Below are positions 2 through 60,671 of a stretch of 64,000 bases of DNA, piece after piece (within the stretch, counting starts at the first letter, position 1; every line of letters begins with the position of its first letter). This DNA is from Amycolatopsis umgeniensis (GTDB lineage: Bacteria; Actinomycetota; Actinomycetes; Mycobacteriales; Pseudonocardiaceae). The DNA lies in the NCBI RefSeq assembly GCF_014205155.1, contig NZ_JACHMX010000001.1:7874001-7938000 (forward strand), written 5' to 3'. The notes beneath the pieces were generated by a model. The model saw only the letters and a list, made by a program, of their open reading frames with translations, ran no database searches and was not told the origin of the DNA. Position numbers and translations under genes: made by a program.

Positions 2-20332
<20,331 letters not shown>

Positions 20333-34300: not shown

Positions 34301-37300
34301 TGGTCACCTCCGCGAGGGAACACCCGTGGGCCGCGACCGCTCTTGAGACCTTGTCCGGTGCCGAGGTGCGGCGGCTGGTCGTCGACCAGCCCGATCGTGT
34401 GGAACTGCCCGACGAGACTTTCGACGGCATCCTGTCCCTGCTGGCCCTCGACGAGACCGAGACAGACGGAGTGTCCTTCGGCGCCGAGGCCACCATGGCG
34501 CTGGTGCGCGAACTGGCCGCACGTGACCCTCAAGGTCCACTGTGGACGCTGACTCGCGGCGCCGTCTCGACCGGCGCCCACGACGCGCCGGACGCACCCG
34601 CGCAAGCCCAGCTGTGGGGCTTCGGCCGCGCGGCCGCACTGGAGAATCCCCAGGCGTGGGGCGGGCTCGTCGACGTTCCGGCCGAGCCGGGGGAGCGGGT
34701 CGTGTCCCTGCTGCGCGGTGTCCTCACCGGCCCGCGCGGCGAAGACCAGGTCGCCGTCCGCGCGGCCGGCGCTTTCGGCAGGCGGCTGGCGCACGCCGAA
34801 TCCAGTGAGCCCAAGCGGTCCTGGCGGCCGCGCGGCACCGTGCTCGTCACCGGTGGTACCGGCGGCCTGGGCGGGATCGTCGCCCGGTGGCTGGTCGAAC
34901 ATGGCGCCGAGCACGTCATTCTCGTGTCACGCCAGGGAGAAGACGCACCCGGCGCGGCCGAACTGGCAGGCGATCGCGTGACCATCGCCGCCTGCGACGT
35001 CGCCGACAAGGACGCCCTCGCAGCGGTCATCGACCCGATCCGCGACGACCTCCGCGCCGTCTTCCACCTCGCCGGAGTCCTCGAACTCGGCCTCATCGAG
35101 ACGATGGACCGCACGCGCTACGCCGATGTCCTCCGCCCGAAGGTCGCCGGGACACGCAACCTCGAAGAACTGACCGACGGACTCGACCTCGACGCTTTCG
35201 TGCTGTTCTCTTCGATCGCCGCCTCCATCGGCAACGCGGTCCAGAGTGCTTACGGCGCCGCGAACGCGCATCTCGAAGCGGTCGCGCAGCGGCGCCGGGC
35301 GCACGGCCTGCCCGCGACGTCGATCGCGTGGGGTCGCTGGGGCAAGGTCGGCATGGGCGTCGGCGCGGACCTCGACGAGATGCTCAGCGGGCTCGGCGTT
35401 CCCGCCATGGCGCCCGGGACCGGCCTCGTCGCGCTCGGCCAGGCGCTGGATCGCGACGAGACCGCGCTGACCGTCGCCGAACTGACCTGGGAGAAGTTCG
35501 CGCCGCCGTTCGCCGCGCTGCGGCCCAGCCCGCTGCTGGCCGACCTGCCCGAGGTCGTCGCCATCGCCGAGGCCGAAGCCGCGCAGGCCGCCGAGGGCGC
35601 CGAAGCCGCCGACGCGTGGCGCACCCGGCTCGCCGGACTGCCCGAAGCCGAACGCGAACGCGTCGTCACCGAACTGGTCCTGACCCACACCGCCGCCGTA
35701 CTCGGGCACACCGACGGCGTCCCGGCCGGGCAGCAGTTCACCAAACTGGGCATCGATTCGCTCACCGCCATCGAACTGCGCGGCCGGATCAACACCGAGA
35801 CCGGACTGGCGCTGCCGCCGACGATGGTGTTCGACCACGCGACCCCGGCCGCGCTGGCCGCGCACCTGCTGGCCGCGCTCACCCCGGCCTCGCAGGAGAC
35901 CCGGACCGTCGTCACCGGCCCTGCCGCCGCGGGCCAGGACGTCGCCGTGGTCGGCCTGTCCTGCCGTTTCGCGGGCGGCAGCGACACTCCCGAGAAGTTC
36001 TGGGAGAACCTGGTGCAGGGCAAGGATCTCGTGCGCGAAGTCCCGCCGGACCGCTGGGCCGCCGCCGACTACTACGACCCCGACCGCACCGCGCCGGGCA
36101 AGGCGTACACGCAGCAGGGCGCGTTCGTCGACGACATCGCGGGCTGGGACGCCGCGTTCTTCGGCCTCTCGCCCCAGGAGGCGCGGCGCCTCGACCCGAC
36201 GTTCCGGCTGCTCATGGAGCTGGTGTGGGAGGGCATCGAGGACGCCGGGCTCACCGCCGACGAACTGCGCGGCAGCCGCACCGGCGTGTTCGCCGGGCTG
36301 ATCGACACCATGCAGTACAGCATGCGGCAGCTCGAAGCCGACGGCATGGACGCGGCCGACGACCCCTACTTCGGGCTCGGCAGCTCGCTTTCCGCCGCCG
36401 CCGGGCGCATCGCGCATCTGCTCGACCTGCGCGGGCCTTGCCTGACCGTGGACACCGCCTGCTCGTCGGCGCTGAGCGCGGCACATCTGGCCGTGCAGAG
36501 CCTCCGCCGGGGCGAGTGCGACATCGCGATCGTCGGCGCCGCTTCGGCGATGATCAACCCGGACGTCTTCATCCAGTCCTGCAAGATGAGCATGCTCGCG
36601 GTCGACGGCCGCACCAAGACCTTCGACGAGAGCGCCGACGGCTACGTCATCGGCGAGGGCGGCGGCGTCGTCGTGCTCCGGAGGGCGGGCGAGGTCGGCC
36701 GGGCGCACCGTACCCGCGCGGTCATCCGCGGCACCGCGACCAACCAGGACGGCCGCAGCAACGGCCTCACCGCACCGAACCGCGCGGCGCAGAACGCGGT
36801 CATCCGCGCGGCGCTGGCCGACGCCGGGGTCGCCCCCGACGAGATCGGTTACGTCGAGGCGCACGGCTCCGGCACGCAGCTCGGCGACGCGATCGAGTTC
36901 ACCGCGCTCGGCGAGATCTTCGGCGAGCGCAACGCCCCCGAGCCGCTCTACGTCGGCGCGGTCAAGACGAACGTCGGTCACACGCTCGCCGCGGCGGGAA
37001 TGGCCGGGCTGATCAAAACGGTGCTGTCGCTCGAACACGGCACCCTGCCGGGGAACCTGCACATGAGCACGCCGAACTCGGTGGTCACCGTGGACGGCAC
37101 GGTACGCCCGGTCCCCGAGGCGCGGCCGTTCCCGGCGAACGCCGCCGGAGTGCTGCGCGCGGGTGTCAGCTCCTTCGGCTGGTCCGGCTCGAACGTCCAC
37201 TTCGTCCTCGACCAGGCGGCGCCCGCTCCGGCCGCTGGCCCGGGCGGGGAATGGCAGCTGCTCACGGTTTCCGCCCAGAGCGAAGCGGGACTGCGTGCCA

Positions 37301-40101
37301 ACGCCGAGGCTCTGGCCGAAAACCTGACCGGAGAACTGGCCGACATCGCTTTCACCACCCAGGCCGGGCGCAGCGCGCTTCCGGTCCGCAAGGCGGTGCT
37401 GGTGCGCGATCACGACGACGCCGTCACGGCCTTGCGCGCTGTCACCGGCGGTTCGGCCGTCACCGACAAGCGGCGCTTCGGTCTCCTGCTGCCCGGCACT
37501 CGCGGCGCCTGGCAGGACACCACCGACGAGCTGTACCGCACCGAACTCGCCTTCCGGGCGGCGATCGACGAGTGCGCGGCCCTGCTGGACGGTCGCGTGG
37601 ATCTGCTCGGCGCGCTCTACGGCACCGCCGAAGCCGACGAGCGGGCCGTGGTCTTCGCCGTCGAGTACGCCTTCTCCCGGCTGCTGACCGCGTGGGGTCT
37701 CGAACCTGCGGTGGTGCTCGGCCGGGGGACAGGCGAATGCGTCGCCGCCGTCGCGGGTGGGCTGTTCAGCCTCTCCGAGGGCCTCGATCTCGCACTCGGC
37801 GGGCAGGTTCCGCAGGCGGGAACACCGACGGTGCCGGTGATCTCGCCCCGCACCGGCACGGTGCTCACCGCCGCCGAAGCCGCGGATCCGGCGCACTGGC
37901 GGATCGCGGACGACCGCTTCGAAGACGGTCTGCTGGCGCTGGCCAAGTACGCCGGTGTCCTGGTCGAAGCCGGGCTCGGGGACGACGGCGCCGAGGCGGC
38001 CGGCCGTTACCTGCCGCAGACGCCGGTGGTCTCGCTGCTGCCGGAGCCGGCGGCCGGGGCCGGACGGCGTGCCTGGCTGACCGCGCTCGGCGCGCTCTGG
38101 GAGCACGGCGTCCAGATCGGCTGGGCGGACGGCGCGGGACCGGATCGACGGTTCGTTTCCCTGCCCGGCTACCGCTTCCAGCGCACCCGCTACTGGCCGG
38201 AGGTCGCGTCTCGGGGCGCTGGTTGGTCGCTCGACCAGATGTCCGAGCAGGAGACGCCGGTCCGCGCCGGTCTGGCCGCGCACACGCCCACCTGGCACCG
38301 GGACACCACCCGCCGGATGCCCGCGACGCCGGGCGACCTGATCCTGCTCGCCGAGCCGGGCAAGTTCGCCGACGGCTTCGCGGCCGCGGCGGAAGCAGCC
38401 GGGCACCGCGTCACGGTCACCTCCGATCTGGCCCACCCGGTGTTCGCCGGGGACGGCCCGCTGCGGATCGTGCACGCCCACGGCCTCACCACCAGTGGTC
38501 TCGAGTCCGGCTTCTACAGCCTCCTGTCACTGGGCAAGGCCATCGGCTCCGAATGCGCCGGGCGCCGGGTCGACCTGCTCGCGCTGGGCCGCAACGGATT
38601 CGACGTCCTCGGCGGGGACGCCACCGACGTCTTCGCTCCGACCATCGCGGCGACGGCCGACGCGATCGCCGCCGAGTACCCGCTGGTCCACGCGCAGTAC
38701 GCGGACTTCGACCGCACCGGCGACAAGGTCGCCCAAGCCATCCACGAGCTCGACCTGCTCGCGGCGTCCACAGTGGACACCGTCGATGGGGTGGCCGTCG
38801 CCGCCTGGCGCGGTGGACGGCGCTGGCTGCGCGGCTTCGACGTCGTCGAGCTGCCGGAGACCGACGACGCGCTGGCGTGGAAGCCCGGTGGGACCTACCT
38901 GATCACCGGCGGGCTCGGCGTTCTCGGCCTGGCGCTGGCCAAGCGGCTCGCGCCGCTGGGCGTGAACCTCGCCTTGGCAGGCCGTTCCGAACTGCCGCCG
39001 GAAGAGACCTGGGACGACTGGATCCGGGAGCACGGTGTCGACGACCGCACGAGCGAAGTGCTGCTGGCGGTGCGGGATCTGCGGGCCCTCGGCGCCGACG
39101 TCCTGACCCTGCGAGCCGACGTCAGCGCCCCCGGCGAGGCCGCCGCGCTGCTGGCCGAGGTCCGCGGCTACTTCGGCTATCTCGACGGTGTCGTGCACGC
39201 GGCCGGGATCGCCGGTGGTGGCCTGCTCCAGAACAAGACCCGCGAGCAGGCGGCCGCGGTGCTGGCGCCGAAGATCGACGGCACCCTCGCCCTCACCGAC
39301 GCGCTGCGCGTCGAACCGGTCGACCTGCTGGTCCTGTACTCCTCGACCGTGACGCTCACCGTCGGCGTCGGCGAGATCGACTACTCCGCGGCCAACGCCT
39401 TCCTCGACGGGGTCGCCTCGGCGTCGGCGGGTGGACGTGGTCCCGCGAAGCAGGTCGTGTCGGTCGCGTGGGGCCCCTGGCAGCTGGATGCCTGGACGTC
39501 GTCCGGCCTCTCGGGTTCCGCCGAAGCACAGGAGGGTTCGCGCAAGTTCCGCGAAGAGTTCGGCATCGGCGCCGAGGAAGGCACCGAACTGCTTTCGCGG
39601 ATCGTCGCCTCCGGCGAGCCGCTGGTGACCGTGCTCCCGCTCCCGCTGACCGACGTGCTGGCCGCGCTGGCCAGGATGGGTTCGGTCGACGCGCTGGTCG
39701 GCGCCGACGCCGCGATCCCCACCGGGGAGCGATACCCGCGGCCCGAGCTGCGTACCGCGTACGTCGCCCCGCGCACCCCGGCGGAAGAGCGCGTCGCCGC
39801 CGCTTGGTGCGACTGCCTCGGCCTGGAAGAGGTCGGCGTGCACGACCCGTTCTTCGACCTCGGCGGCACCTCGCTGATCGGCCTGGTGCTGATCGGCCGG
39901 GTCGCCAAGGAGTTCGGCGTCGAGCTGGCCCCGGCGAGCCTGTTCGAAAAACCGACCATCGCCGAATTCGTCACGCTCCTCGGTGAACCGGGCGCACCCC
40001 AAGCGGCCGCCGAACCCGCCGAAGACGTCTCCGCCCGCGGCGAACGCCGCCGCGCCCGCACCGCGAAGCTCCGCAAACGCCCGAGCCGGACCGGAAGGTG
40101 A
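31381..40101 (+). CDS. Type I modular polyketide synthase, modules 7-8
   Basis: The 2906-residue protein starts at the ATG at 31381, behind an AGGAG site, with a class 1 docking helix (about residues 6-32) that fits the PKS2 tail. Module 7: KS (C206, H341, H379), AT (S642, HAFH 737-740), KR (nucleotide loop about 1157-1164, Y1291, N1295), ACP (S1460). Module 8: KS (C1694, H1828, H1867), a degenerate AT (GRGTGE at 2114-2119, active Ser replaced by Gly2116), KR (loop 2508-2516, Y2668, N2672) and an ACP with a PCP-like LGGTS motif (S2831). The C-terminus is a basic, Arg/Lys-rich tail rather than an acidic docking domain, so hand-over to PKS4 must differ from the earlier junctions. No thioesterase domain follows. 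Module 8 is clearly of another lineage than modules 1-7. Confidence 0.98.
31480..35885 (+). other. PKS module 7: KS-AT-KR-ACP
   Basis: The KS and the malonyl-type AT (HAFH) are intact. There is no DH. The KR keeps the nucleotide loop, Ser, Tyr and Asn. However, the LDD position reads L-E-L and the tryptophan expected after the SS motif of A-type KRs is missing, so stereochemistry cannot be predicted. The expected product is a beta-hydroxyl. Confidence 0.88.
35935..39990 (+). other. PKS module 8: KS-AT(inactive)-KR-ACP
   Basis: The KS is complete (DTACSSA, EAHGSGT, TNVGHT). The AT region (about 37250-38190) is shortened: GHSxGE has become GRGTGE (37741 is just after this motif), and the small subdomain that would carry HAFH is missing, with sequence running straight into the VPVIS strand. 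The KR and ACP look functional. This module needs an acyltransferase in trans; PKS4, encoded next, is the obvious candidate. Confidence 0.85.
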
Positions 40102-40109
40102 ACCACCCC

Positions 40110-43046
40110 ATGACCACGCGAGAACGGGACACCGGCGACGACATCGCGATCGTCGGCATGGCCGGGAACTTCCCCGGCGCGCCCGACATCGGCAAGTTCT
40201 GGGCCGATCTGTGCGCAGGCCGCGACGGCATCACCCGGATGACCCGCGCCGAACTGCTCGCCGCGGGTGTTCCCGCCGAAGTGGCCGACGATCCCGCGTT
40301 CGTCCCCGCGGCCGGACTGCTGCCCGGGATCGACCGCTTCGACGCCGACTTCTTCGGCTACAACCGGACCGACGCCGAACTGCTCGACCCGCAGCACCGG
40401 CTGTTCCTCGAATGCGCGTGGCACGCGCTGGAGGACGCGGGCGTAGACCCGGACCGGATCGAAGGCCTGGCAGGCGTTTTCGCGGGCGGCGCCCCGAGCA
40501 CCTACCTCCTGTCGAATCTGCTGTCCAACGACGTCACCGCGCTGACCGTCGGCCCGGACCAACTGATCCTGCAGAACGAGAAGGACCTGATCGCGTCCAG
40601 GCTGTCCTACGCGCTCGACCTGACCGGACCCTCGGTCAGCGTGCAGAGCTGCAGCTCGACAGCGCTCGCCGCCGTCGCCCAAGGGTGCTCCAGCCTGCTC
40701 ACCGGCGAGTCCGATCTGGTGGTGTCCGGTTCGGTTTCCGTTGTCGTGCCTCAGGAACCGGGCTACCTCTACCGTGAGGGGAGCCGGTTCGCGCCCGACG
40801 GGATCAACCGGATCCTCGACGCGGGCGCCAACGGCAAGGTGCCCGGCAACGGCCTCGGCGTCGTCGTCCTGCGGCGGCTCGAGGACGCGCTGGCCGACGG
40901 CGACCGGATCTACGCGGTGATCCGCGGTTGGGCCATCCACCACGAGGGCAACCGCGCGCGTCAGGGGTTCAACCTGCCGGGTGTGCCCGGTCAGGCCGCC
41001 GTCGTCGCCGAGGCGATGGCCGCCGCCGACGTCGAACCCGCCGAGATCGACCACATCGAGGTGTCCACTTTGGGCACTCCGTTCGGTGACGTCGCCGAGA
41101 TCTCGGCGCTGCAGAAGATCTTCGACGTCGACGGTGTCGAGCGGGTCACGCTCGGCTCGATCGACGCGAACCTCGGGCACATCAACCAGGCGGGCGGGAT
41201 CGCCCGCCTGATCAAGGCGGCGCTGGCGCTGCACCACGAGAAGCAGCCGCCGCCGGTCAACTTCGAGAAGCCCAACCCGCAGCTGGCCCACAGCGGCGAC
41301 AAACTCGTCGTGCCAACCGAACTGGCCGACTGGCCGCGCGGTGAGCGGCCGCGGCTGGCCGGGGTCAGCGCGTACGGCTTCGGCGGTACCGACGCCCACG
41401 TCGTCATCGAGGAAGCTCCCGAGGACTTCCCGGAACGTCCGGCCGCCCGGCCGCATCAGCTGCTCGCCTGGTCCGCGCGGACCCAGGAAGCGGCCGACGC
41501 GATGACCGGCAGGCTCGCCGCAGACCGTCCTGAGTGGACAGATCTGGCGGATGTCGCCTACACGCTGCACAACGGGCGCAAGGCCTTCGACCACCGCCGG
41601 ATGACCGTCGTGTCCTCTGTGGACGACGCCGCCGACGCGTTCACGTCCGAAACCCGTGTGATCGCCGAGGCGGACACGAAGCCGCGGAAGGCGGCTTTCC
41701 TGCTGGCCGGGGTCGGCGAGCAGTACCGCGGCATGGCCGGCGGCCTGTACGACAGCGAGCCGGAGTTCAAGGCCGCCGTCGACGAATGCGCCGCGCTGTT
41801 CCGGTCTCATCTCGGCGTCGACCCGACGGAGAGCCTGCACGGCGCTCGCGGCTCCGACGGAGGCGACTTGGCCCGGCTGCTGGGCCGCGCCACCGACAGC
41901 GAGGACGCGGCGCCGTCGGTCACCCAGCCCGCCGTGTTCACGCTCGGCTACGCGCTCGGACGTCTGCTGCGCGCTTGGGGCGTCCAGCCCTCCCTGCTCG
42001 CCGGGTACAGCGTCGGCGAGTTCGCCGCCGCCACGCTCGCGGGCGCCCTGACGCTGCGGGAAGCCACCGCGCTGGTGGCCACCCGCGCGAAGCTGATCGA
42101 GAAGCTGCCGACCGGCTCGATGGCCGCGATACCGCTGGGCACCACCGAACTCACCGCACTGGTGGGTGACGTGACCGCTTTCGGTGTCGACGTCGCCGCG
42201 GTGAACGGGCCGCGGATGATCGTGGTGTCCGGCGCGGGTGACGGCGTCGAGAAGCTGGCCGCCGCGCTCGCCGAACACGGCGTCCCCGCGCGGCCCTTGC
42301 GCACGACGCACGCCTTCCACTCGCGTGCCCTGCGCCCCGCCGCGGCCGAACTCACCGCGTGGGCCCGGAAGAACCTCACACCGCGCGAGCCGGAGGTTCC
42401 GTACCTGTCGAACGTCACCGGCGCGCCGATCACCGCGAAGCAGCTGAAGGATCCCGGCTACTGGGCCGAGCACATGTGCCGTCCGGTGCGGTTCGCCGCG
42501 ATGATCGAGCAAATTGCCAGTGATTCCCCGGATACCGTGTTGCTGGAACTGGGAGCCGGGCAGTCGCTCGGCTCGATGTTCCGCGGTCACCCCGATTTCC
42601 CGCAGACCTCGTGGCCGCTGCTGGTACCCACCCTGCCCGGCGAGGCCGACCCCCGCCAGGACACGGCCGTGCTCACCGAAGCGCTCGGCCGCGCCTGGCT
42701 CTCGGGGGCGGACATCGACTGGCGGGCCTATCACGACGGCCGCGACCCGAGGAAGACCACGCTGCCGGGCTACCCGTTCCAGCGCGACCGCTACTGGATC
42801 GAGCCGACCCAGGCCGCCGCCGACGTCGCACTCGGCGCCCGGTCCGCCAGGCCGGTCTACCTGATCGAAGGCGAACTCGACGTCACCGCCCGGGATCTGG
42901 CCGCCCGGCTGGGCGCCGAACTGGGCGCGACCGTCTTGTTCGCCGAAGAACACCCCGGCGGCGCCGACGCCGTGCGGGCCGCCCACGGCCGGCTGGACGG
43001 CGTGCTGGACCTGACCACGAGCAACGCAGCCAAGGAGGAACGATGA
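40110..43046 (+). CDS. PKS4: KS-like (catalytically dead) plus acyltransferase didomain, no ACP
   Basis: The ATG at 40110 has a GGAAGG ribosome site about ten bases upstream. A GTG at 40098, overlapping the PKS3 stop, is the alternative start and would add four residues. The protein has about 978 residues. The KS-like fold is recognisable, but ungapped alignment of DTACSSS gives QSCSSTA (179-185), putting Ser182 at the catalytic Cys position with a Cys one residue earlier. The first His is Ser319 (EVSTLGT); only the second survives (H357). The AT keeps its nucleophile as GYSVGE (S634), and HAFH at 734-737; its N-terminal core is GVGEQ rather than GQGSQ. About 70 residues resembling the start of a KR-type fold follow, but no ACP. 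The gene overlaps the next start by ATGA. It could be a chain-length-factor-like partner of KS8, a trans-acting AT, or both (inference). Confidence 0.93.
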   Translation: MTTRERDTGDDIAIVGMAGNFPGAPDIGKFWADLCAGRDGITRMTRAELLAAGVPAEVADDPAFVPAAGLLPGIDRFDADFFGYNRTDAELLDPQHRLFLECAWHALEDAGVDPDRIEGLAGVFAGGAPSTYLLSNLLSNDVTALTVGPDQLILQNEKDLIASRLSYALDLTGPSVSVQSCSSTALAAVAQGCSSLLTGESDLVVSGSVSVVVPQEPGYLYREGSRFAPDGINRILDAGANGKVPGNGLGVVVLRRLEDALADGDRIYAVIRGWAIHHEGNRARQGFNLPGVPGQAAVVAEAMAAADVEPAEIDHIEVSTLGTPFGDVAEISALQKIFDVDGVERVTLGSIDANLGHINQAGGIARLIKAALALHHEKQPPPVNFEKPNPQLAHSGDKLVVPTELADWPRGERPRLAGVSAYGFGGTDAHVVIEEAPEDFPERPAARPHQLLAWSARTQEAADAMTGRLAADRPEWTDLADVAYTLHNGRKAFDHRRMTVVSSVDDAADAFTSETRVIAEADTKPRKAAFLLAGVGEQYRGMAGGLYDSEPEFKAAVDECAALFRSHLGVDPTESLHGARGSDGGDLARLLGRATDSEDAAPSVTQPAVFTLGYALGRLLRAWGVQPSLLAGYSVGEFAAATLAGALTLREATALVATRAKLIEKLPTGSMAAIPLGTTELTALVGDVTAFGVDVAAVNGPRMIVVSGAGDGVEKLAAALAEHGVPARPLRTTHAFHSRALRPAAAELTAWARKNLTPREPEVPYLSNVTGAPITAKQLKDPGYWAEHMCRPVRFAAMIEQIASDSPDTVLLELGAGQSLGSMFRGHPDFPQTSWPLLVPTLPGEADPRQDTAVLTEALGRAWLSGADIDWRAYHDGRDPRKTTLPGYPFQRDRYWIEPTQAAADVALGARSARPVYLIEGELDVTARDLAARLGAELGATVLFAEEHPGGADAVRAAHGRLDGVLDLTTSNAAKEER

Positions 43047-43888
43047 CCCTCGTCGGAGTCGTCGGCGCCGGTGTGATGGGCACCGGGGTCGCGCAGAACC
43101 TCGCCACCAGCGAGCACGAGGCCGTGCTCATCGACGTCGACCCGGGCAAACTCGCCGACGCCCGCGACCGGATCGAACTCGAATGCCGGATGAGCCGCAT
43201 GCTCGGCGGACCGGAGATCGACGCGGCCGCCGTACTCGGCCGGATCACCTTCGGGACCGAACTCGAGCTGCTCGCCGAAGCCGAAGTCGTGATCGAGAAC
43301 ATCACCGAGAACTGGGACCTGAAGTCCCGCCTGTACCCGAAACTCGACGAGGCCTGCAAAGCCGACACGGTGTTCGTCGTCAACACCTCCGCCATCCCGA
43401 TCACCAAGGTCGCCGCGCTCACCCGCCGGCCGGACAAGGTGATGGGCGTCCACTTCATGAACCCCGTGCCGATGAAGCCGTCGTGCGAGTTCATCCCCGG
43501 CTACCACACCAGCGAGTCCACCAAGGACATCGTGCGCGAGCTGCTGCTGTCGATGGGGAAGAAGCCGATCCCGGTCAACGACGCCTCCGGGTTCGTCTCC
43601 AACCGCGTGCTGATGCTCACCGTCAACGAGGCCGCTTTCCTCGTGCACGAAGGAGTCGCGGACGCGGAGACCGTCGACGAGGTCTTCCGCGGCTGCTTCG
43701 GGCATCCGATGGGCCCGCTCGAGACCGCCGACCTGATCGGCGTCGACACGATCCTCTACAGCGTCGAAGTGCTCTACGACGAGTTCAACGACAGCAAGTA
43801 CCGCCCCTGCCCCCTGCTCAAGCAGATGACCGCGGCCGGACTGCACGGCCGCAAGAGCGGCAAGGGTTTCTACAACTACAGCGGCTGA
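43043..43888 (+). CDS. 3-hydroxyacyl-CoA dehydrogenase family protein, FkbK-like (glyceryl-ACP oxidation)
   Basis: The ATG at 43043 overlaps the PKS4 stop (ATGA) and has AAGGAGG just upstream; an in-frame upstream extension is rejected because it lies inside PKS4. The 281-residue protein has an N-terminal Rossmann loop (GVVGAGVMG, residues 5-13), a conserved His-Phe-Met-Asn-Pro segment near residue 137, and the C-terminal dimer fold of HADH enzymes. In methoxymalonyl-ACP and hydroxymalonyl-ACP pathways this family is thought to oxidise the C3 or C2 alcohol of glyceryl-ACP. Its place beside the ACP, FkbI-like and FkbH-like genes supports that role over beta-oxidation. Confidence 0.9.
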   Translation: MTLVGVVGAGVMGTGVAQNLATSEHEAVLIDVDPGKLADARDRIELECRMSRMLGGPEIDAAAVLGRITFGTELELLAEAEVVIENITENWDLKSRLYPKLDEACKADTVFVVNTSAIPITKVAALTRRPDKVMGVHFMNPVPMKPSCEFIPGYHTSESTKDIVRELLLSMGKKPIPVNDASGFVSNRVLMLTVNEAAFLVHEGVADAETVDEVFRGCFGHPMGPLETADLIGVDTILYSVEVLYDEFNDSKYRPCPLLKQMTAAGLHGRKSGKGFYNYSG

Positions 43889-43934: not shown

Positions 43935-44186
43935 ATGACGCAGGACGTCCGAGGCGAGATCCGCGCCTTCATCGGGGCGAAGTTCCCCAGTCTGTCGTTC
44001 ACCGACGAGCAGGACATCTTCGCACTGGGGTTCGTGAACTCCCTGTTCGCGATGGAGCTGGTCATGTTCATCGAGAAGGCGTTCGCCACGCGGATCCCCA
44101 ACGAGGACCTGAAGCTGGACAACTTCCGCACCGTCACGCGGATGACCGAGCTGGTCGAGCGGCGCACCGCCGCTGCCGCGCACTGA
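43935..44186 (+). CDS. Discrete acyl carrier protein, FkbJ-like (carrier for hydroxymalonyl)
   Basis: This 83-residue protein starts at the ATG at 43935, 46 bases after the dehydrogenase stop, with a GAGAAAGG ribosome site. The phosphopantetheine site is Ser36 in GFVNSL, with Asn replacing the usual Asp, as can occur in carrier proteins of this group. Flanking genes indicate that it carries the glyceryl group made by the FkbH-like protein while it is oxidised to hydroxymalonyl, and then presents it to an AT. This gap is the only sizeable interruption in an otherwise overlapping gene chain. Confidence 0.92.
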   Translation: MTQDVRGEIRAFIGAKFPSLSFTDEQDIFALGFVNSLFAMELVMFIEKAFATRIPNEDLKLDNFRTVTRMTELVERRTAAAAH

Positions 44187-44200
44187 ACGAGGAGAAAGAC

Positions 44201-45340
44201 GTGAGGGCGAGGACACGGCCCGAAACCCCCGAAGCCGAGGTGGTCGGGCGTTTCGTCGACGAGGAGGTCGGCCCGCACGCGGACGCGTGGGACCGGGCCG
44301 AGAGCATCCCCGGTGACGTGCTGCGGCGGGTGGGGGAGCTGGGACTGTGGGCCCCGTTCCTGCCCGCGGAGGCGGGCGGCGCCGGGCTGGACATGGTCAC
44401 CCTCGGACGGTTGCACGAGGAGGTCGGCCGCGGCTGTTCGTCGCTGCGAAGCCTGCTCACCGTGCACACGATGGTGACCGCGACGGTGCAGCGCTGGGGT
44501 GACGACGAACAGCGCGAGCGCTGGCTGCCCGTCCTGTCCGAAGGCGCCACCCTGGGCGCGTTCTGCCTGACCGAACCCGACTTCAGCGGGAGCGACTCGA
44601 CGGCCGCGGGAACCGTGGCCGTCGCCGAAAACGGCGTCTGGACATTGCGGGGACGCAAGACCTGGATCACCGGCGGCCAGGTCGCCGGGCTGCTGCTGGT
44701 GTTCGCCGGCACGGCCACCGGGATGAGCGCGTTCCTGGTCCCCGCCGACCATCCGGGAGTCCGGGTGACCCCGGTCCGGCACATGCTCGGCACCACGGCG
44801 AGCATGCTGGCGACCATCGAGTTCGACGACGTCCGGCTCGACCCGTCCGCGCTGGTCGGGCCGCCGGGCTGGGCCGCGGGAACGGTGATGACCGGCGCGC
44901 TCGACCTCGGTCGCTACAGCGTGGCGTGCGGTTCGGTCGGCATCGTCCGGGCCGCGCTGGCCGCTTCGGCCGCGTACACGTCGGCGCGTTCGGCGGGCGG
45001 CGGGCTGCTGCGGGATCTGCCGCAGATCCGCGCCAAGATCAGCGAGATGGTCACCGCGCGCGACGCCGCGCGGTTGCTGTGCGAGAAGGCGGGCAGGCTC
45101 AAGGACGCGGGCGACCCGGCGACCATCATGGCGACCTGGGTCGCCAAGTACTTCGCGTCCACCGCCGCGGCAAAGGCGGCTTCGGACGCTGTCCAGATCC
45201 ACGGCGCGAACGGCTGCGGCCCGGACTATCCGGTGGCCCGGCTGTACCGCGACGCGAAGGTCATGGAAATCATCGAGGGCAGCACCCAGATCCAGGAGCT
45301 GACCATCGCGGACGAAGCGTACCGGGAGGTGGCGGGATGA
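44201..45340 (+). CDS. Acyl-CoA dehydrogenase family protein, FkbI-like
   Basis: The GTG start at 44201 has a GAGGAG ribosome site and lies 14 bases after the ACP stop. The 379 residues show the acyl-CoA dehydrogenase fold: an FAD-contacting segment around FCLTEPDFSGSD, a WITGG strand, and the C-terminal EGSTQIQE segment that holds the usual catalytic glutamate region. In FK520-type clusters the FkbI homologue takes part in oxidising ACP-bound glycerate towards the extender unit. The stop overlaps the next ATG (ATGA). The discrete ACP next door argues for an ACP-bound rather than a CoA-bound substrate. Confidence 0.9.
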   Translation: MRARTRPETPEAEVVGRFVDEEVGPHADAWDRAESIPGDVLRRVGELGLWAPFLPAEAGGAGLDMVTLGRLHEEVGRGCSSLRSLLTVHTMVTATVQRWGDDEQRERWLPVLSEGATLGAFCLTEPDFSGSDSTAAGTVAVAENGVWTLRGRKTWITGGQVAGLLLVFAGTATGMSAFLVPADHPGVRVTPVRHMLGTTASMLATIEFDDVRLDPSALVGPPGWAAGTVMTGALDLGRYSVACGSVGIVRAALAASAAYTSARSAGGGLLRDLPQIRAKISEMVTARDAARLLCEKAGRLKDAGDPATIMATWVAKYFASTAAAKAASDAVQIHGANGCGPDYPVARLYRDAKVMEIIEGSTQIQELTIADEAYREVAG

Positions 45341-46386
45341 CCGAGTTGTTGGAGAAACCGAAGCGCGGCCGCATCAAATGCGTGGTGTGGGACCTGGACA
45401 ACACGGTGTGGGACGGAACCCTGCTCGAGGACGGCGAGGTCACCGTGCGCCCCGAGGTGGTCGCGGAGATCCGGCGGCTCGACGAGCTGGGCGTCCTGCA
45501 TTCGGTGGCCAGCCGCAACGACCACGAAGCGGCGATGACACGGCTGAAGGTGGCGGGTCTCGACGAGTACTTCCTGTACCCGCAGATCACCTGGAACCCC
45601 AAATCCGGCTCGGTGGAAAGGATCGCGAAGGCGCTCAACATCGGCCTCGACGCGATCGCGTTCGTCGACGACCAGCCTTTCGAGCTCGCCGAGGTCGCGC
45701 ACGCGCTGCCGTCGGTCAAGACCGTCGACGTGGCGGAGCTGGGGGAGGCACTGGCGTCGGAGGAGTTCCGGCCCAAATTCGTCACCGACGAGTCGCGGGT
45801 GCGCCGCGAGCTCTACCGCGCGGCCGCCGTCCGGGAACAGGTCGAACAGGACCACGAGGGCACCAGCGAGGAGTTCCTGTCCACTTTGGACATGAAGTTC
45901 ACGATCGCCCGCGCCCAGCGGGAAGACCTGCAGCGGGCCGAGGAACTGACCGTCCGCACCAACCAGCTCAACTCGACCGGCCGGACCTACTCCTACGAGG
46001 AACTGGACGAGCTGCGCACCTCTCCCGACCACGTGCTGCTCGTCGCGTCCCTTTCGGACAAGTACGGCGGTTACGGCAAGATCGGTCTCGCACTGGCCGA
46101 ACGCGGCACGGAGGCCTGGCACCTGCGGATGATGCTGATGTCGTGCCGCGTGATGTCGCGCGGGGTCGGCACGGTCCTGCTCAACCACATCATGGGGCTG
46201 GCGAAGGAAGACGGCGCGACGCTGCGCGCGGATTTCGTCGAGACCGGGCGCAACCGGGTCATGTACGTGACGTACGCGTTCGCGGGTTTCTCCGAGATCT
46301 CGCGCGACGGTGACAGGCTCGTCCTGGAGTCCGATCTGAGCACGATCCAGCCGCCGCCGCCCTATCTGACGATGGAGCTGCGATGA
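45337..46386 (+). CDS. FkbH-like HAD/acyltransferase (glyceryl-ACP synthase)
   Basis: The ATG at 45337 overlaps the previous stop; an upstream in-frame extension lies inside the FkbI-like gene and is rejected. The 349 residues begin with a HAD-superfamily core, with D19 and D21 in WDLDNT. A later FVDDQPFE segment supplies further acidic residues. A GNAT-like C-terminal half ends near YLTMELR. FkbH homologues capture 1,3-bisphosphoglycerate, dephosphorylate it and load the glyceryl group on the ACP. No fkbG-type O-methyltransferase is present between here and the end of the operon, so the extender is predicted to be hydroxymalonyl-ACP rather than methoxymalonyl-ACP, unless a methyltransferase is encoded elsewhere. 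Confidence 0.94.
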   Translation: MTELLEKPKRGRIKCVVWDLDNTVWDGTLLEDGEVTVRPEVVAEIRRLDELGVLHSVASRNDHEAAMTRLKVAGLDEYFLYPQITWNPKSGSVERIAKALNIGLDAIAFVDDQPFELAEVAHALPSVKTVDVAELGEALASEEFRPKFVTDESRVRRELYRAAAVREQVEQDHEGTSEEFLSTLDMKFTIARAQREDLQRAEELTVRTNQLNSTGRTYSYEELDELRTSPDHVLLVASLSDKYGGYGKIGLALAERGTEAWHLRMMLMSCRVMSRGVGTVLLNHIMGLAKEDGATLRADFVETGRNRVMYVTYAFAGFSEISRDGDRLVLESDLSTIQPPPPYLTMELR

Positions 46387-47129
46387 CCGCACCGATCACG
46401 GCCCGGCCCTGGCTGCCCGGCGGGATCCCGCCGGGCGCGGTGACCAAGCTGTTCTGTTTCCCGCACGCCGGCGCGAGCGCGGCGGTCTACCGCGAGTGGA
46501 TCCCGGCGGCGGGCGAAGACCTGGTCGTCCTGCCGGTCCAGCTGCCCGGCCGGGCCGAACGTGGTCGAGAGACGCCGTACGAAGACGTCGAAAGTCTTGT
46601 CGAGGCGGCCATCGACGGCCTCGGCGACGCGCTGACCGGTGACTTCGCGTTCTTCGGCCACAGCGTCGGCGCCCTGACGGCGTACCTGCTGACCCGGCGG
46701 CTCGCCGAGCGCGGGGCCACGCTGCCGAAACACCTGTTCGTGTCAGGGAGGGCGGCACCGCAGCTGCCCGACACCCGGCTCCAGCTGCGAGGACTGCCGG
46801 ACGAGCGGCTCGCCGCCGAACTGCACGCCCTCGGCGGGCTGCCGGAGGTCCTGCGGCGCGAACGGGAGCTGCTGGCGATGTTCCTGCCCCTGATGCGGGC
46901 CGACCTGGCGGTCAACGAGACGTACCGGCACGTGCCGGGGGAGCCGTTGCCGGTGCCGCTGACCGTGTTCGGCGGCGACCGCGATCCGCGGGCCGATCTG
47001 GACGAACTGGCGGCGTGGCTCGAACTCGCCACCGATTCGACGATGGTCACCTACCCGGGCGGGCACTTCTACCTCGAGCAGCGCGTACCGGAGCTGCTGG
47101 GTGTGATCCACCGGAAGCTGGGCCGATGA
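46383..47129 (+). CDS. Type II thioesterase (editing)
   Basis: This 248-residue alpha/beta hydrolase has its nucleophile in GHSVG (S94), an acidic pair at D199/D201 (GGDRD) and a C-terminal catalytic H228 (PGGHFYL). It opens with the FCFPHAG motif typical of type II thioesterases in PKS and NRPS clusters. Such enzymes remove stalled or mis-primed acyl groups from carrier proteins. The gene is ATGA-coupled on both sides. Because the assembly line lacks an integrated thioesterase, a role in product release cannot be excluded, but the sequence alone favours editing. Confidence 0.93.
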   Translation: MTAPITARPWLPGGIPPGAVTKLFCFPHAGASAAVYREWIPAAGEDLVVLPVQLPGRAERGRETPYEDVESLVEAAIDGLGDALTGDFAFFGHSVGALTAYLLTRRLAERGATLPKHLFVSGRAAPQLPDTRLQLRGLPDERLAAELHALGGLPEVLRRERELLAMFLPLMRADLAVNETYRHVPGEPLPVPLTVFGGDRDPRADLDELAAWLELATDSTMVTYPGGHFYLEQRVPELLGVIHRKLGR

Positions 47130-47884
47130 CGACACAGTGGTTCTCGGCCTGGAAGCAGCCCTCAGGCGCGTTGAGCGAGCAACTTCGCCCCGGCCGGGAC
47201 GCGCATGTGTGGCGCGTCCCCCTCGCCAGGGTGCTCGCCCCCGGCTCCGCCGAGGTCTACAGCCTGCTCGGCGCGCTCTCCGAAGACGAGTTGCGCCGGG
47301 CGGCCGCCATCACGGTGGACGAGGAACGGGCGCACTTCCTGGCCGCACACGTCGCGCTGCGCGACATCCTCGCCTCCTACACGGGCCTCGCGCCTGCCTC
47401 GCTGCGGTTCACGCGCGACGGCGACCGCCCGGCGCTGGCCGGTGCGACGGGGATCGAGTTCAGCCTGTCCCGCTCCGGCGGGTTGGCGCTGGTCGCGGTC
47501 GCCGACGGTGTCCGGATCGGCGTGGACGTCGAGGAGGTCAGGGAGGTCGACCACGACGGCCTCGCCGCGCGGACGCTGCGTCCCGAAGAGGCCGCCGCCG
47601 TCCGCGAGCCACTGACCTTCTTCCGTTACTGGACTTGCAAAGAGGCCTACCTCAAGGCCGAAGGCACCGGCCTCGCCGGATTGCCGGGCCCCTCCTTCAC
47701 GCTCACCGGCGGCGACGTCGAACTCGAAGACCGTCCTGAATGGACGATCACGGAACTGGACGCCGGAGCGGGCAACGCGGCCGCGCTGGCGGTCCCGGCG
47801 CGCCCGGTCACCGTGCGCGCCTTCGATTGGCTGCCCGGCAGGCCGCGACCGGCCGGACAGTACCGGAAAGGCGGAGTGAAATGA
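47126..47884 (+). CDS. Sfp-type 4'-phosphopantetheinyl transferase
   Basis: The start is taken at the ATG at 47126, overlapping the thioesterase stop; a longer in-frame version inside the previous gene is rejected. The 252-residue protein has the magnesium-binding GVDVEE motif (D134, E136) and WTCKEAYLK (K172, E173), the two signatures of the two-domain Sfp class. It should convert apo-ACPs of the PKS and the discrete ACP to the holo form using CoA. Presence in the operon makes the cluster self-sufficient for carrier activation. It overlaps the next gene by ATGA. Confidence 0.94.
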   Translation: MTTQWFSAWKQPSGALSEQLRPGRDAHVWRVPLARVLAPGSAEVYSLLGALSEDELRRAAAITVDEERAHFLAAHVALRDILASYTGLAPASLRFTRDGDRPALAGATGIEFSLSRSGGLALVAVADGVRIGVDVEEVREVDHDGLAARTLRPEEAAAVREPLTFFRYWTCKEAYLKAEGTGLAGLPGPSFTLTGGDVELEDRPEWTITELDAGAGNAAALAVPARPVTVRAFDWLPGRPRPAGQYRKGGVK

Positions 47885-48585
47885 GCGACCCGAAAGCGGA
47901 GCTCGAAGAGTTCATCCAGACCACGGAGTTCAGCTGTCTCGGCGCTCGCGCGGCGTTGAAGAAGGGCTCGATCGTCCACGGCCACTACCCGGCCCTTGGC
48001 GACCCGGAGTCGGCGCGCGCCCACTACCGCGACATGCTCGGCTACGCGCGCGACATCCGGCCCACGTTGTCGGACAAGAGCTTCCGTACTTTCGTGTCGA
48101 CCTTCGAGGAACCCGGAGGGATTCTCGACGAGGAGGAACACGAACGTCTGCTGTGGCGCCATCTTCAGCTCATGCACGACATCGACAGCCGCACCTACGG
48201 CCTCGACGAAGGCGCGACGTCCGACCCCGACGAGCCGAACTTCGGCTTCCACGTGGCCGGGCACTCGTTCTTCGTCGTCGGCATGCATCCGGGCGCTTCC
48301 CGGGCGAGCCGCCGGTTCCCCCGGCCCGCGATCGCGTTCAACTCGCTGATGCAGTTCATGTTGCTGGGCGACAAGTTCTTCTCGATGCAGGACGCGATCC
48401 GCAAACGCGAGACGACCAACAACGGCTCGGTCAACCCGAGCTTCACCACCTACGAGTACCAGATGCCGTCGCGTCACTTCGCGGGCCGGATGACCGAGGA
48501 CGACTGGAAGTGCCCGTTCACTTCGCGGCACGAGGCTTCGTCGGTCAAGTACACGTCGGACGTGATGCAGCGTCCCACCGGCTGA
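47881..48585 (+). CDS. YqcI/YcgG family protein, probable heme-dependent N-hydroxylase (DcsA/GntA-like family)
   Basis: This 234-residue protein is the last gene of the operon and ATGA-coupled to the phosphopantetheinyl transferase. Family features seen are an N-terminal SCLGARAALK segment (C19), H124 and H128 in FHVAGH, the block MHPGASRxSRRF (H136, S140, R141, R144, R145), N154 and Q158, and a C-terminal WKCPF. Characterised members of the YqcI/YcgG group include DcsA (arginine to N-hydroxyarginine, D-cycloserine) and GntA (guanitoxin), which hydroxylate guanidine nitrogens with heme. The substrate here is unknown; a guanidino group on starter or chain is one possibility, but nothing in the window shows one. 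Family assignment is fairly firm; the reaction is inference. Confidence 0.8.
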   Translation: MSDPKAELEEFIQTTEFSCLGARAALKKGSIVHGHYPALGDPESARAHYRDMLGYARDIRPTLSDKSFRTFVSTFEEPGGILDEEEHERLLWRHLQLMHDIDSRTYGLDEGATSDPDEPNFGFHVAGHSFFVVGMHPGASRASRRFPRPAIAFNSLMQFMLLGDKFFSMQDAIRKRETTNNGSVNPSFTTYEYQMPSRHFAGRMTEDDWKCPFTSRHEASSVKYTSDVMQRPTG

Positions 48586-59101: not shown

Positions 59102-60127
59102 CTATCCCTCTTCCTTGAGAGTCTCGTTGCCGTGCGCGATCAGGGGGACGACGCCCGCGCCGATGCCGTCGAATCCGGCACCGACGGTCTGGCCCTTGCT
59201 GTAGCGGAGGTGGATGCCTTCCAGGATCACCGCGAGTTTGAAGAAGGCGAAGCCCACGTACCAGTTGAGCCGCGAGACGTCGCGGCCCGAACGCTCGGCG
59301 TACCGCGCGATGACCTCGTCGTTGCGCGGGTATCCCGGCGCGGAACTGGCGTTGGACACGAACTGCAGCGACACCTTGTCGCGTTCGGCGTAGGCCACCA
59401 GCAGCGCGAGGTCGGTCAGCGGGTCGCCGAGGGTGGACATCTCCCAGTCCAGCACCGCGGTGATCCGGTCGTCGCTGTTCACGAGCACGTTGTCGAGCCG
59501 GTAGTCACCGTGGATGATCGACGGCTTGCCCGAAACCGGTATCGAACCCGCCAAGCGGTCGTGCAGCTCGTCGACGCCGGGCAGATCGCGGCTGCGGTTG
59601 CCGTCGAGTTGCTTCTTCCAGCGTCGCAACTGGCGTTCGAGGAAGCCCTCCGGACGGCCGAAATCGCCCAGCCCCACCGACTCGGGATCGACGGCGTGCA
59701 ACTCGACCAGGGTGTCGACCAGCTCGTCCGCGATCGCCTTCGTCCTGGCGGGGCCCAGCGCGGCCAGTTCGGTGTCCGAGCGGAACGGCGTGCCCTCCAC
59801 GAATTCCATCACGTAGAACCGCGAGCCGATGACGTCGGTGTCCTCGCACAACAGCACGGTTTCCGGCACCGGGACGGCCGTGCCGTGCAGCCCGGAGATC
59901 ACCCGGAACTCACGGCCCATGTCGTGCGCCGTCGGCAGGACGTGACCCAGCGGCGGACGGCGGACCACCCAGCGGGACCGGCCGTCGCCCACGATGTAGG
60001 TGAGGTTGGACCGGCCCCCTTCCACGACCTGGCCACTCAGGTCGCCTCGGACGAGACCCGGCCGGTGCTCGTCCAGATGGGCCTTGAGCCTGGCCAGGTC
60101 GAGGCCCGGCAGGTCGGTCTGGTTCAT
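59102..60127 (-). CDS. Phosphotransferase family protein (APH fold), ACAD10/11 kinase-like
   Basis: The start is taken at 60127 (M-N-Q-T-D), with a GGAGG site; an in-frame extension to 60346 runs into the upstream gene and has no family match. The 341-residue protein shows the kinase catalytic loop [10 protein letters not shown] (H206, D208, N213) and the metal-binding DWE (D227). This APH-like family is commonly paired with an acyl-CoA dehydrogenase, as here two bases downstream. An aminoglycoside-resistance role is unlikely given the operon. It is the first gene of a four-gene operon controlled by the promoter at 60128-60218. Confidence 0.88.
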
Positions 60128-60159
60128 GGTGCCTCCAGCGTCTCGCTTTCCGGTTACAG

Positions 60160-60175
60160 TACCGACCAGTCGGTA
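60160..60175. promoter_or_regulatory. TetR-type palindrome before the kinase/acyl-CoA dehydrogenase operon
   Basis: TACCGA-CCAG-TCGGTA has perfect 6-bp arms. It lies in the 91-base gap between the MaoC-like gene and the kinase gene, 33-48 bases upstream of the latter's start. It resembles ACCGAC-type operators of TetR regulators controlling acyl-CoA genes. The cognate regulator is not identified. Confidence 0.6.
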
Positions 60176-60218
60176 TGTCGGGTAGTGGTGGTCCGGCGAG
60201 GTGCCGGAGGTCACCTCC

Positions 60219-60671
60219 TCAGGCGATGAGCCGGACGACCATCTCCGCGACGCACGCCGGTTTGGGTTCACCGTCGATCTCGATCGTCCACCGGACGACG
60301 GCCTGCTTGCCACCGGTGACGTCGGTGACCTCGACCAGTTCGGCACCCGCCCTGATCTTCGAGCCCACCTTGACCGGCTGGGGGAACCTGACCTTGTTGA
60401 GGCCGTAGTTGATGCCCATCTTGAGCCCGTTGACCCGGTAGATCTTCCCGACGAAGCCCGAAATGAGCGAAAGCGTCAGGAAGCCGTGGGCGATCGGCGC
60501 TCCGAACGGGCCCTGGGCAGCCTTCTCGACGTCGACGTGGATCCACTGGTGGTCGTCGGTGGAATCGGCGAACAGGTTCACCCGTTCCTGGGTGAGCGTC
60601 AGCCATTCGCTGTAGCCGAAGTGCTCGCCGACGGCGTTCTCGAACTCCTGCAGGGAAGCGAATTCGCGCAT
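60219..60671 (-). CDS. MaoC family dehydratase (hotdog fold enoyl-CoA hydratase)
   Basis: This 150-residue single-hotdog protein starts at 60671, three bases after the reductase stop. It contains the hydratase-2 signature region FADSTDDHQWIHVDVEKAA, with the catalytic pair D40 and H45, followed by AHGFLTLSL. Such proteins hydrate trans-2-enoyl-CoA to (R)-3-hydroxyacyl-CoA. Coupling with a FabG-like reductase gives a consistent two-step hydratase/reductase unit. Confidence 0.92.
   Translation of the reverse strand: MREFASLQEFENAVGEHFGYSEWLTLTQERVNLFADSTDDHQWIHVDVEKAAQGPFGAPIAHGFLTLSLISGFVGKIYRVNGLKMGINYGLNKVRFPQPVKVGSKIRAGAELVEVTDVTGGKQAVVRWTIEIDGEPKPACVAEMVVRLIA

What the first reader, a model, noticed from the sequence alone, without database searches (positions are those of the whole stretch)
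35935..43046. Complementary broken domains: module 8 (live KS, dead AT) next to PKS4 (dead KS, live AT)
Seen: module 8 of PKS3 has all KS catalytic residues, but its AT has lost the Ser (GRGTGE) and the HAFH subdomain. PKS4, the next gene, has lost the KS Cys and first His but keeps the AT Ser and HAFH, and has no ACP. Neither protein can extend a chain alone; together they supply exactly one KS, AT, KR and ACP. Inference: they form a split extension unit, perhaps with PKS4 acting as a chain-length-factor-like partner of KS8 plus a trans-AT. The PKS3 tail is basic and lacks the class 1 docking domain used at the other junctions, which fits a different kind of contact.
Basis: partly seen in the sequence, partly recalled or inferred. 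Interest (0 to 1): 0.82.

Follow-up and report, generated by a model that had tools for sequence, protein, structure and literature searches.

The report
Two half-broken enzymes sharing one step
In this antibiotic-type assembly line the last building station has lost its loading arm and the next enzyme has lost its joining arm, and comparison with dozens of relatives suggests that the second enzyme survives as a separate loader that hands the first one an unusual oxygen-rich building block.

Summary
PKS4 is KS°-AT: live AT, no ACP. The state is conserved and ordered: of 58 distinct loci showing both halves, 30 have AT8 and PKS4-KS live, 7 have AT8 dead and PKS4-KS live, 21 have both dead, 0 have AT8 live and PKS4-KS dead. 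KS8 and PKS4 are orthologues of consecutive butyrolactol-type hydroxymalonyl modules. Butyrolactol A contains four hydroxymalonyl units made by four modules of which only two have an AT, so a module with a dead AT8 is evidently filled from elsewhere. Best explanation: PKS4 is a relict downstream module kept as a trans-acting hydroxymalonyl-ACP transferase for module 8, by a two-step ratchet (AT8 lost first, then PKS4's KS and the rest). PKS4's AT is the only GYSxG AT among the cluster's PKS ATs. The dead KS is under purifying selection. The 'split unit with trans-AT' part is supported; the chain-length-factor heterodimer is not. The basic PKS3 tail is an ancestral docking element. Nothing was tested biochemically.

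The parts
35932..37218 (+). KS8, live ketosynthase of PKS3 module 8 (12th catalytically intact KS of the cluster)
   Evidence: [21 protein letters not shown]; one search places it in the KS8 orthologue clade
37471..38130 (+). AT8 remnant: Ser lost (GRGTGE), small (lid) subdomain deleted
   Evidence: core predicted to fold, pLDDT mostly 81-93 in an otherwise moderate model; dN/dS 0.107
38251..39660 (+). KR8 (structural and catalytic parts)
   Evidence: PF08659; TGGLGVLG and the S/Y/N residues visible
39766..39990 (+). ACP8, the presumed acceptor of hydroxymalonate
   Evidence: (PF00550), GGTSL
40006..40098 (+). basic C-terminal tail of PKS3, ancestral docking element (docking role inferred)
   Evidence: +5 to +10 in the last 25 residues in 34 of 34 loci of all stages
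40098..43046 (+). PKS4, KS°-AT protein; GTG start overlaps the PKS3 stop by 4 bases
   Evidence: model pLDDT 90, pTM 0.85
40128..41417 (+). KS° of PKS4 (Cys to Ser, first His lost, Lys to Asp)
   Evidence: dN/dS 0.050 among five Amycolatopsis
41670..42587 (+). live-looking AT of PKS4 (GYSVGE, HAFHS), GYSxG type of ACP-linked extender units
   Evidence: (best PDB match of the linker-AT part is ZmaA-AT 4QBU)
42810..43022 (+). C-terminal folded unit of PKS4, probably a stub of a KR structural subdomain
   Evidence: beta-alpha-beta-alpha-beta, pLDDT about 80; dN/dS 0.251; identity as KR stub inferred from position
43043..43888 (+). 3-hydroxyacyl-CoA dehydrogenase homologue of the hydroxymalonyl-ACP set; ATG overlaps the PKS4 stop (ATGA)
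43935..44186 (+). discrete ACP of the hydroxymalonyl-ACP set
44201..45340 (+). acyl-CoA dehydrogenase homologue of the hydroxymalonyl-ACP set
45337..46386 (+). FkbH (glyceryl-ACP formation); start approximate
   Evidence: TIGR01686, 281 bits, cut-off 146.65
46383..47129 (+). discrete thioesterase, the likeliest chain-release or editing enzyme (inference)
   Evidence: PF00975

Best explanation
PKS4 is a relict of the elongation module that once followed module 8 in a butyrolactol-type hydroxymalonyl section. It now acts only as a trans-acting acyltransferase: its AT takes hydroxymalonate from the discrete ACP, which the FkbH and dehydrogenase genes directly downstream supply, and puts it on ACP8 of PKS3. 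KS8 then condenses the growing chain with it, KR8 reduces the ketone, and the chain leaves as a 2,3-dihydroxyacyl end, probably by the discrete TE. The dead KS is kept as fold, dimer and docking scaffold, held next to PKS3 by the old basic-tail / acidic-leader contact. The state arose in two steps: AT8 died first and module 9's AT covered for it; then module 9's KS, KR and ACP and the later modules became dispensable and were lost, but its AT did not. SHOWN here: residues, orthology, order and co-occurrence of losses, selection, AT type. INFERRED: loading of ACP8, the identity of the unit, docking, TE release.
For: (1) Orthology: KS8 and PKS4-KS fall with full support in the clades of two consecutive modules of butyrolactol-type clusters; the PKS4 AT does the same in the AT tree. 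(2) Published anchor: butyrolactol A carbons C1-C8 are four hydroxymalonyl units by 13C labelling (PMC5355916), while the published domain table gives ...KS/KR/ACP, KS/AT/KR/ACP-KS/AT/KR/ACP, KS/DH/KR/ACP for those four modules (PMC5932044, passages), so two AT-lacking modules are filled. The unnamed Streptomyces genome G580 has 7 of 8 tested ORFs, orf18 to orf24 in order, at exactly the published butyrolactol lengths, and the eighth (orf17) at 3141 against 3135 aa; its module-8 AT is GHGVGD without a lid, and the last module has no AT. (3) State counts: PKS4-KS dead 21, with AT8 dead 21 of 21 and PKS4 AT live 21 of 21; AT8 dead with PKS4-KS live 7, PKS4 AT live 7 of 7; both live 30; PKS4-KS dead with AT8 live 0. 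(4) The 11 other PKS ATs of the cluster are all GHSxG; PKS4's GYSVG matches hydroxymalonyl- and aminomalonyl-ACP ATs (GYSFG, GYSLG; PMC4207774, passages), and 4QBU (ZmaA-AT) is the best of 55 PDB matches of its linker-AT part. (5) All four hydroxymalonyl genes follow PKS4 in 21 of 21 both-dead loci, and none has an ACP-like hit between; in the window they start inside the PKS4 stop. (6) Among five Amycolatopsis the dead KS4 has dN/dS 0.050, against 0.041 (KS8) and 0.025 (KS7).
Against: No biochemistry. The published ACP-extender rule is only half met: the RXR position is PAR (first residue no longer basic, third still Arg), and the lid is HAFH, the malonyl-type letters, not ZmaA's GAAH. As far as I read them, the labelling and domain papers do not state that a neighbour's AT fills the AT-less modules. 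The both-dead loci form one clade in the KS tree, so the counts are not independent events. Selection is less clear-cut in the single Sciscionella pair: dead KS4 0.096 against 0.027 for KS8 and 0.080 for KS7; the method is simple counting (NG86). In one relative, L123, the loss goes the other way (AT8 live, next AT dead), so which AT serves which ACP is not fixed across the family.
Confidence: 0.84

Rival explanations
1. One reading: the PKS4 KS° forms a heterodimer with KS8, like KSbeta with KSalpha, and this mixed dimer shapes condensation, with the AT attached.
For: The dead KS is conserved, and 30 of the 174 columns invariant in 19 live KS4 rows changed in all 13 dead rows, many to one fixed new residue, as if it had taken a new role. 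The PKS3 tail and PKS4 leader are kept.
Against: KS8 hardly changed in the same lineage (3 of 121 live-invariant columns). In 7 loci KS8 sits in an AT8-dead module beside a next protein with live KS and AT. PKS4 is predicted as an ordinary KS-AT didomain, nearest to ClbI and CurL. KSbeta carries Gln at the Cys position (recalled); here it is Ser.
Confidence: 0.07
2. PKS4 loads ordinary malonyl-CoA on ACP8, and the hydroxymalonyl genes are vestigial or serve something else.
For: HAFH lid letters and one Arg left in the RXR stretch are malonyl-like.
Against: The AT groups inside the GYSxG clade of butyrolactol-type modules, apart from the GHSxG ATs in the tree; its orthologue in butyrolactol belongs to a hydroxymalonyl module; the hydroxymalonyl genes follow PKS4 in 21 of 21 both-dead loci, and no other PKS AT of the cluster is of the GYSxG type.
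Confidence: 0.06
3. PKS4 is decaying and without function; ACP8 is filled by another AT (AT7 next door or the fatty-acid FabD).
For: PKS4 has lost KS activity, KR and ACP; its C-terminal stub is less constrained (dN/dS 0.251).
Against: Both the dead KS and the AT are under purifying selection (0.050 and 0.144, against AT7 0.123), AT catalytic residues are kept in 21 of 21, and the gene with dead KS and live AT is found in six named genera (Amycolatopsis, Sciscionella, Lentzea, Kibdelosporangium, Allokutzneria and a 'Nocardia').
Confidence: 0.03

Closest known systems
Butyrolactol A synthase, terminal hydroxymalonyl modules (Streptomyces; PMC5355916, PMC5932044)
   Same: Orthologous KS8 and next KS; AT-lacking module at the same place; the same HCDH-ACP-ACAD-FkbH-TE gene order; hydroxymalonyl extender.
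   Different: Butyrolactol has four such modules, and the module after the AT-dead one is complete; here only KS8 remains active and the next protein is KS°-AT without ACP.
Zwittermicin ZmaA-AT (4QBU), hydroxymalonyl-ACP transferase
   Same: GYSxG motif; the active-site Arg column is kept (R663, invariant in the 42 rows); best PDB match of the linker-AT part.
   Different: ZmaA-AT sits in a working PKS protein; RXR is MCM and lid GAAH, against PAR and HAFH here.
trans-AT polyketide synthases with discrete ATs
   Same: An AT on a separate protein fills a module without an active AT (here inferred).
   Different: The AT is a cis-type AT on a KS-AT didomain; 11 of 12 modules keep their own AT.
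KSalpha/KSbeta (chain-length factor) pairs of type II PKS
   Same: A live KS next to a catalytically dead KS gene.
   Different: The dead KS has an AT attached, Ser instead of Gln (recalled) at the Cys position, and comes from a downstream module, not from its partner.
KSQ-AT loading didomains (GfsA, PikAI)
   Same: A KS-AT didomain with an altered KS nucleophile; similar fold.
   Different: KSQ domains decarboxylate and serve chain start (recalled); PKS4 has also lost the first His and the Lys and lies at the chain end.

Membership tests
Butyrolactol-type hydroxymalonyl terminal modules | KS8 and next KS orthologous to the butyrolactol-type modules | tested here: met
   (KS8 clade: 16 AT8-dead rows 100/99 within 25 rows 100/98; PKS4-KS clade of 26 rows 100/98)
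Butyrolactol-type hydroxymalonyl terminal modules | HCDH, ACP, ACAD, FkbH, TE directly after the last PKS gene | tested here: met
Butyrolactol-type hydroxymalonyl terminal modules | Four consecutive catalytically competent hydroxymalonyl modules | tested here: not met
   only KS8 is live, PKS4-KS is dead, no further KS follows in the window
Hydroxymalonyl-ACP-specific AT (ZmaA type) | GYSxG in place of GHSxG | tested here: met
   motif table from PMC4207774
Hydroxymalonyl-ACP-specific AT (ZmaA type) | Hydrophobic residues in the RXR stretch before the lid | tested here: inconclusive
   PAR in PKS4; first residue is K or R in 10 of 10 readable (of 11) other PKS ATs of the cluster; third residue still Arg
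Hydroxymalonyl-ACP-specific AT (ZmaA type) | Transfers hydroxymalonate from the discrete ACP | not testable with these tools
   needs biochemistry
trans-AT PKS | Modules of the assembly line generally lack ATs | tested here: not met
   11 modules have live-looking GHSxG ATs, one is dead
trans-AT PKS | AT supplied by a separate protein to an AT-less module | tested here: inconclusive
   anatomy and butyrolactol anchor fit; transfer itself not shown
KSalpha/KSbeta (CLF) | Dead KS forms a heterodimer with the live KS | not testable with these tools
   single-chain prediction only
KSalpha/KSbeta (CLF) | Gln at the Cys position and no AT in the dead subunit (features recalled) | tested here: not met
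   Ser at that column, AT attached

The most novel reading that the evidence does not exclude
The reciprocal losses have produced an obligate heteromeric PKS module in which the dead KS of PKS4 has gained a new, non-catalytic job: a specific complex with module 8 (ACP8 docking or even a mixed KS8/KS4 dimer) that presents hydroxymalonate to KS8. This would be a dedicated trans-AT born step by step from a cis-AT module, caught with its intermediates in living genera.
Probability: 0.2. Interest if true: 0.8.

Novelty: new variant of a known kind. Interest (0 to 1): 0.6.

Why it matters
It shows, with intermediates in living genera, how a cis-AT assembly line can turn one of its own modules into a separate loading enzyme: both live, then AT8 dead, then both halves reciprocally dead. 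It suggests how AT-less modules of butyrolactol-type synthases are filled, predicts one hydroxymalonate-derived diol at the carboxyl end of an uncharacterised Amycolatopsis/Lentzea/Sciscionella product, and offers a natural KS°-AT that may be usable as a portable hydroxymalonyl loader. It also warns that annotation counting every KS as a module would overcount this line by one.

Tried and rejected
Considered and set aside: (a) sequencing error or pseudogene: rejected, the state recurs in 21 distinct loci with purifying selection. One search lists one stop codon inside the match for G231 and for G081; in the loci cut from them the frame from the KS on is open for 914 (L019, of which L110 is a duplicate) and 882 residues (L112), so those stops lie at the edges of the matches. 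(b) PKS4 as a decarboxylating KSQ-type loading protein: set aside as unlikely, since the first His and the Lys are lost and its place is at the chain end. (c) The basic tail as a sign of a new contact: rejected, it is ancestral. (d) Calling this a trans-AT PKS: rejected, 11 modules keep their ATs. (e) First dN/dS run: KS7 and AT7 values were spoiled by loci that lack those domains; its other values agree (28 pairs: KS8 0.041, dead KS4 0.048), but against one more distant genome both rise (0.125 and 0.143). (f) The automatic LIVE/dead label was wrong for L041, L121 and L122; they were re-read as live and counted so (recount). Rows left out of the 58: of 93 sources, 13 were under 48% identity, 14 were duplicates and 8 distinct rows had no KS8 in view (L012, L106, L107 with dead PKS4-KS; L031, L036, L040, L060, L119 with live KS). 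(g) The KS8-AT8 model has only moderate confidence (pLDDT 73.5, pTM 0.58) and is used only for the AT8 core. (h) Length matching of G580: single lengths also match by chance elsewhere in G580 and, for the two sizes over 1000 aa, once each in two of four control loci (L025, L009); the in-order run of seven is the evidence, not any single match. (i) G525, the other new Streptomyces locus, does not show its module 8 (contig end) and is not counted. Paper searches in the held open-licence library listed no description of such a KS°-AT / AT° pair; I saw listings and passages, and the 2015 butyrolactol genome paper was not read, so this is not proof that it is unpublished. The Herbidospora survey PMC4599437 holds none of the searched terms.
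Full report
WHERE IT IS. The window is G000:C1:7874001-7938000 of a 9.23 Mb single-contig genome. Its PKS4 is 94-96% identical (best segment) to genes in five named Amycolatopsis species, so it is an Amycolatopsis or close relative. The first KS of the line lies about 22 kb before the window. Across the stretch examined there are 13 KS domains: 12 with all catalytic residues, and PKS4's.

KS8 has [15 protein letters not shown] and KTNVGH. AT8 has GRGTGE where the nucleophile motif should be and lacks the lid subdomain. PKS4 has QSCSSTAL (Cys to Ser, with a Cys one place earlier), EVSTLGT (first His lost) and DANLGH (Lys to Asp, second His kept); its AT has GYSVGE and HAFHS; it has no ACP. It ends in a short folded unit, by position probably a KR stub. 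PKS3 and PKS4 overlap by GTGA, and PKS4 and the next gene by ATGA, so the three are probably translated together.

WHAT LIES NEXT TO IT. Directly downstream come a 3-hydroxyacyl-CoA dehydrogenase, a discrete ACP, an acyl-CoA dehydrogenase, FkbH, a thioesterase and a phosphopantetheinyl transferase. The first four correspond to the hydroxymalonyl-ACP set named as ZmaN/D/G/E homologues for butyrolactol (PMC5355916, parts 1 and 2 of 3 read). Among the ORFs of 43-51 kb that I scanned none matched an O-methyltransferase family; not every ORF of the cluster was scanned. So hydroxymalonate, not methoxymalonate, is expected.

THE FAMILY. One scan of genome contigs gave 53 loci; a search of 390 genomes of the family gave matches in 169 at E 1e-150 or better, from which 38 stretches were taken. 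In a KS tree of 88 rows from 25 of these loci plus the window, each position of the line forms its own clade: KS7, KS8, PKS4-KS, the next and the last. PKS4-KS is thus the orthologue of the KS of a complete module that elsewhere follows module 8. The AT tree (quick method, 54 rows from 16 loci and the window) puts all its GYSxG ATs together, with PKS4's in a 10-row clade of AT8-dead lineages (SH-aLRT 100).

AN ORDERED SERIES. I read the residues in 93 sources (window, 54 and 38 loci): 13 were below 48% identity, 14 were duplicates, and 8 distinct rows did not show KS8. Three of the 30 (L041, L121, L122) were mislabelled by the script and re-read. PKS4's AT has Ser and His in all 28 loci with a dead AT8. 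In the KS tree the AT8-dead KS8 rows form one clade (16 rows, 100/99), and the dead PKS4-KS rows one clade inside their group (11 rows, 100/99). The simplest history is that AT8 died once and PKS4's KS died later in one descendant line, together with its KR and ACP and the modules after it. The four hydroxymalonyl genes follow PKS4 in 21 of 21 both-dead loci, and none of the 21 has an ACP-like hit between PKS4's AT and the dehydrogenase.

THE PUBLISHED ANCHOR. In butyrolactol A the carbons C1-C8 come from four hydroxymalonyl units and C9/C10/C28 from methylmalonate (PMC5355916). The domain table for that cluster (PMC5932044, passages) lists the last modules as KS/AT/DH/ER/KR/ACP-KS/KR/ACP, KS/AT/KR/ACP-KS/AT/KR/ACP and KS/DH/KR/ACP: two of the four hydroxymalonyl modules have no AT. 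In 199 genomes of G390's genus (Streptomyces by L025's title), 3 had a strong match to this PKS4 type, G390 itself included. One of them, G580, has ORFs of exactly the published lengths for orf18 to orf24 in order (7 of 8 lengths tested), orf17 being 3141 against 3135 aa, so it is that species or very close (inference from lengths; single lengths also match by chance, see Tried and rejected). There the module-8 AT is GHGVGD without a lid, the next two ATs are GYSVGE/HAFHS and GYSLGE/HAFHT, and the last module has no AT. So a module with a dead AT8 does incorporate hydroxymalonate, and the neighbouring GYSxG ATs are the obvious source. That last step is inference; the papers as far as read do not state it. 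Butyrolactol-like clusters were reported for Lentzea californiensis, albida, jiangxiensis and cavernae (PMC9120177, passages); these are presumably the Lentzea loci of this series.

WHAT THE AT CARRIES. All 11 other PKS ATs of the line are GHSxG. PKS4's GYSVG matches ZmaA-AT (GYSFG, hydroxymalonyl-ACP) and ZmaF (GYSLG, aminomalonyl-ACP) as tabulated in PMC4207774 (passages), and ZmaA-AT (4QBU) is the best of 55 PDB sequences for PKS4's linker-AT part (1.4e-60); for whole PKS4 the KS-AT didomain ClbI comes first. Against this, the RXR stretch is PAR, only partly hydrophobic, and the lid is HAFH. In the 10 of 11 other ATs where the stretch can be read, its first residue is Lys or Arg.

WHY THE DEAD KS IS KEPT. 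Among five Amycolatopsis (10 pairs, NG86 counting) dN/dS is 0.025 for KS7, 0.041 for KS8, 0.050 for the dead KS4, 0.123 for AT7, 0.144 for PKS4's AT, 0.107 for the AT8 remnant and 0.251 for the PKS4 tail. In the one Sciscionella pair the dead KS4 is looser (0.096) than KS8 (0.027) and near KS7 (0.080). Of 174 columns invariant in 19 live KS4 rows, 114 are kept in all 13 dead rows (window and 12 loci; the two Allokutzneria were listed apart and not counted), 30 are changed in all and 30 in some; 14 of the 30 changed in all lie at the Cys (176-181), the first-His loop (302-319) or the Lys and what follows it (346-359). In KS8 only 3 of 121 such columns changed in all rows. Catalysis was lost while the fold was kept. 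PKS4 is predicted with high confidence as an ordinary KS-AT didomain (pLDDT 90, pTM 0.85), nearest to ClbI and CurL KS-AT. The AT8 core is predicted to fold without its lid (moderate model).

DOCKING. The PKS3 tail carries +5 to +10 in its last 25 residues and the PKS4 leader -1 to -7 over 15 residues in 34 of 34 loci examined, of all stages. The contact, if it is one, is therefore older than the breakage, and it has outlived the chain transfer it presumably served, which fits a remaining need for PKS4's AT at ACP8.

MECHANISM AND LIMITS. Most likely (about 0.84): hydroxymalonyl-discrete ACP, then PKS4 AT, then ACP8, then condensation by KS8, reduction by KR8, release by the TE. The chain-length-factor idea (0.07), malonate loading (0.06) and a useless PKS4 (0.03) are less likely. 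No loading, dimer or product experiment could be run here.

Noticed in passing
The next two genes look like SbnB-type and SbnA-type (2,3-diaminopropionate) genes by eye.
   Followed up: partly
   Followed up: no
L121, L122, L124, L128: Short version of the section with only two hydroxymalonyl-type modules, with live AT in both, before the hydroxymalonyl genes; in L128 the KS8 frame appears broken.
   Followed up: no
window 47740-48585: Homologue of the heme-dependent guanidine N-hydroxylase GntA (NF041366, 194 bits, cut-off 145), in or next to the cluster; may hint at a guanidino or amine group in the product.
   Followed up: no
L064 11918-12865 and 12883-14295, minus strand (about 25-27 kb before the window): VinK-like acyltransferase and an AMP-binding enzyme before the first PKS gene, suggesting an amino-acid-type starter unit.
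   Followed up: no
L143+L144 (unnamed Streptomyces genome G580): Very probably the butyrolactol A cluster or that of a close relative, by exact ORF lengths; its last module (1169 aa) has no AT motif between its linkers.
   Followed up: partly
window 59102-60346, minus strand: APH-family phosphotransferase gene downstream of the cluster.
   Followed up: no
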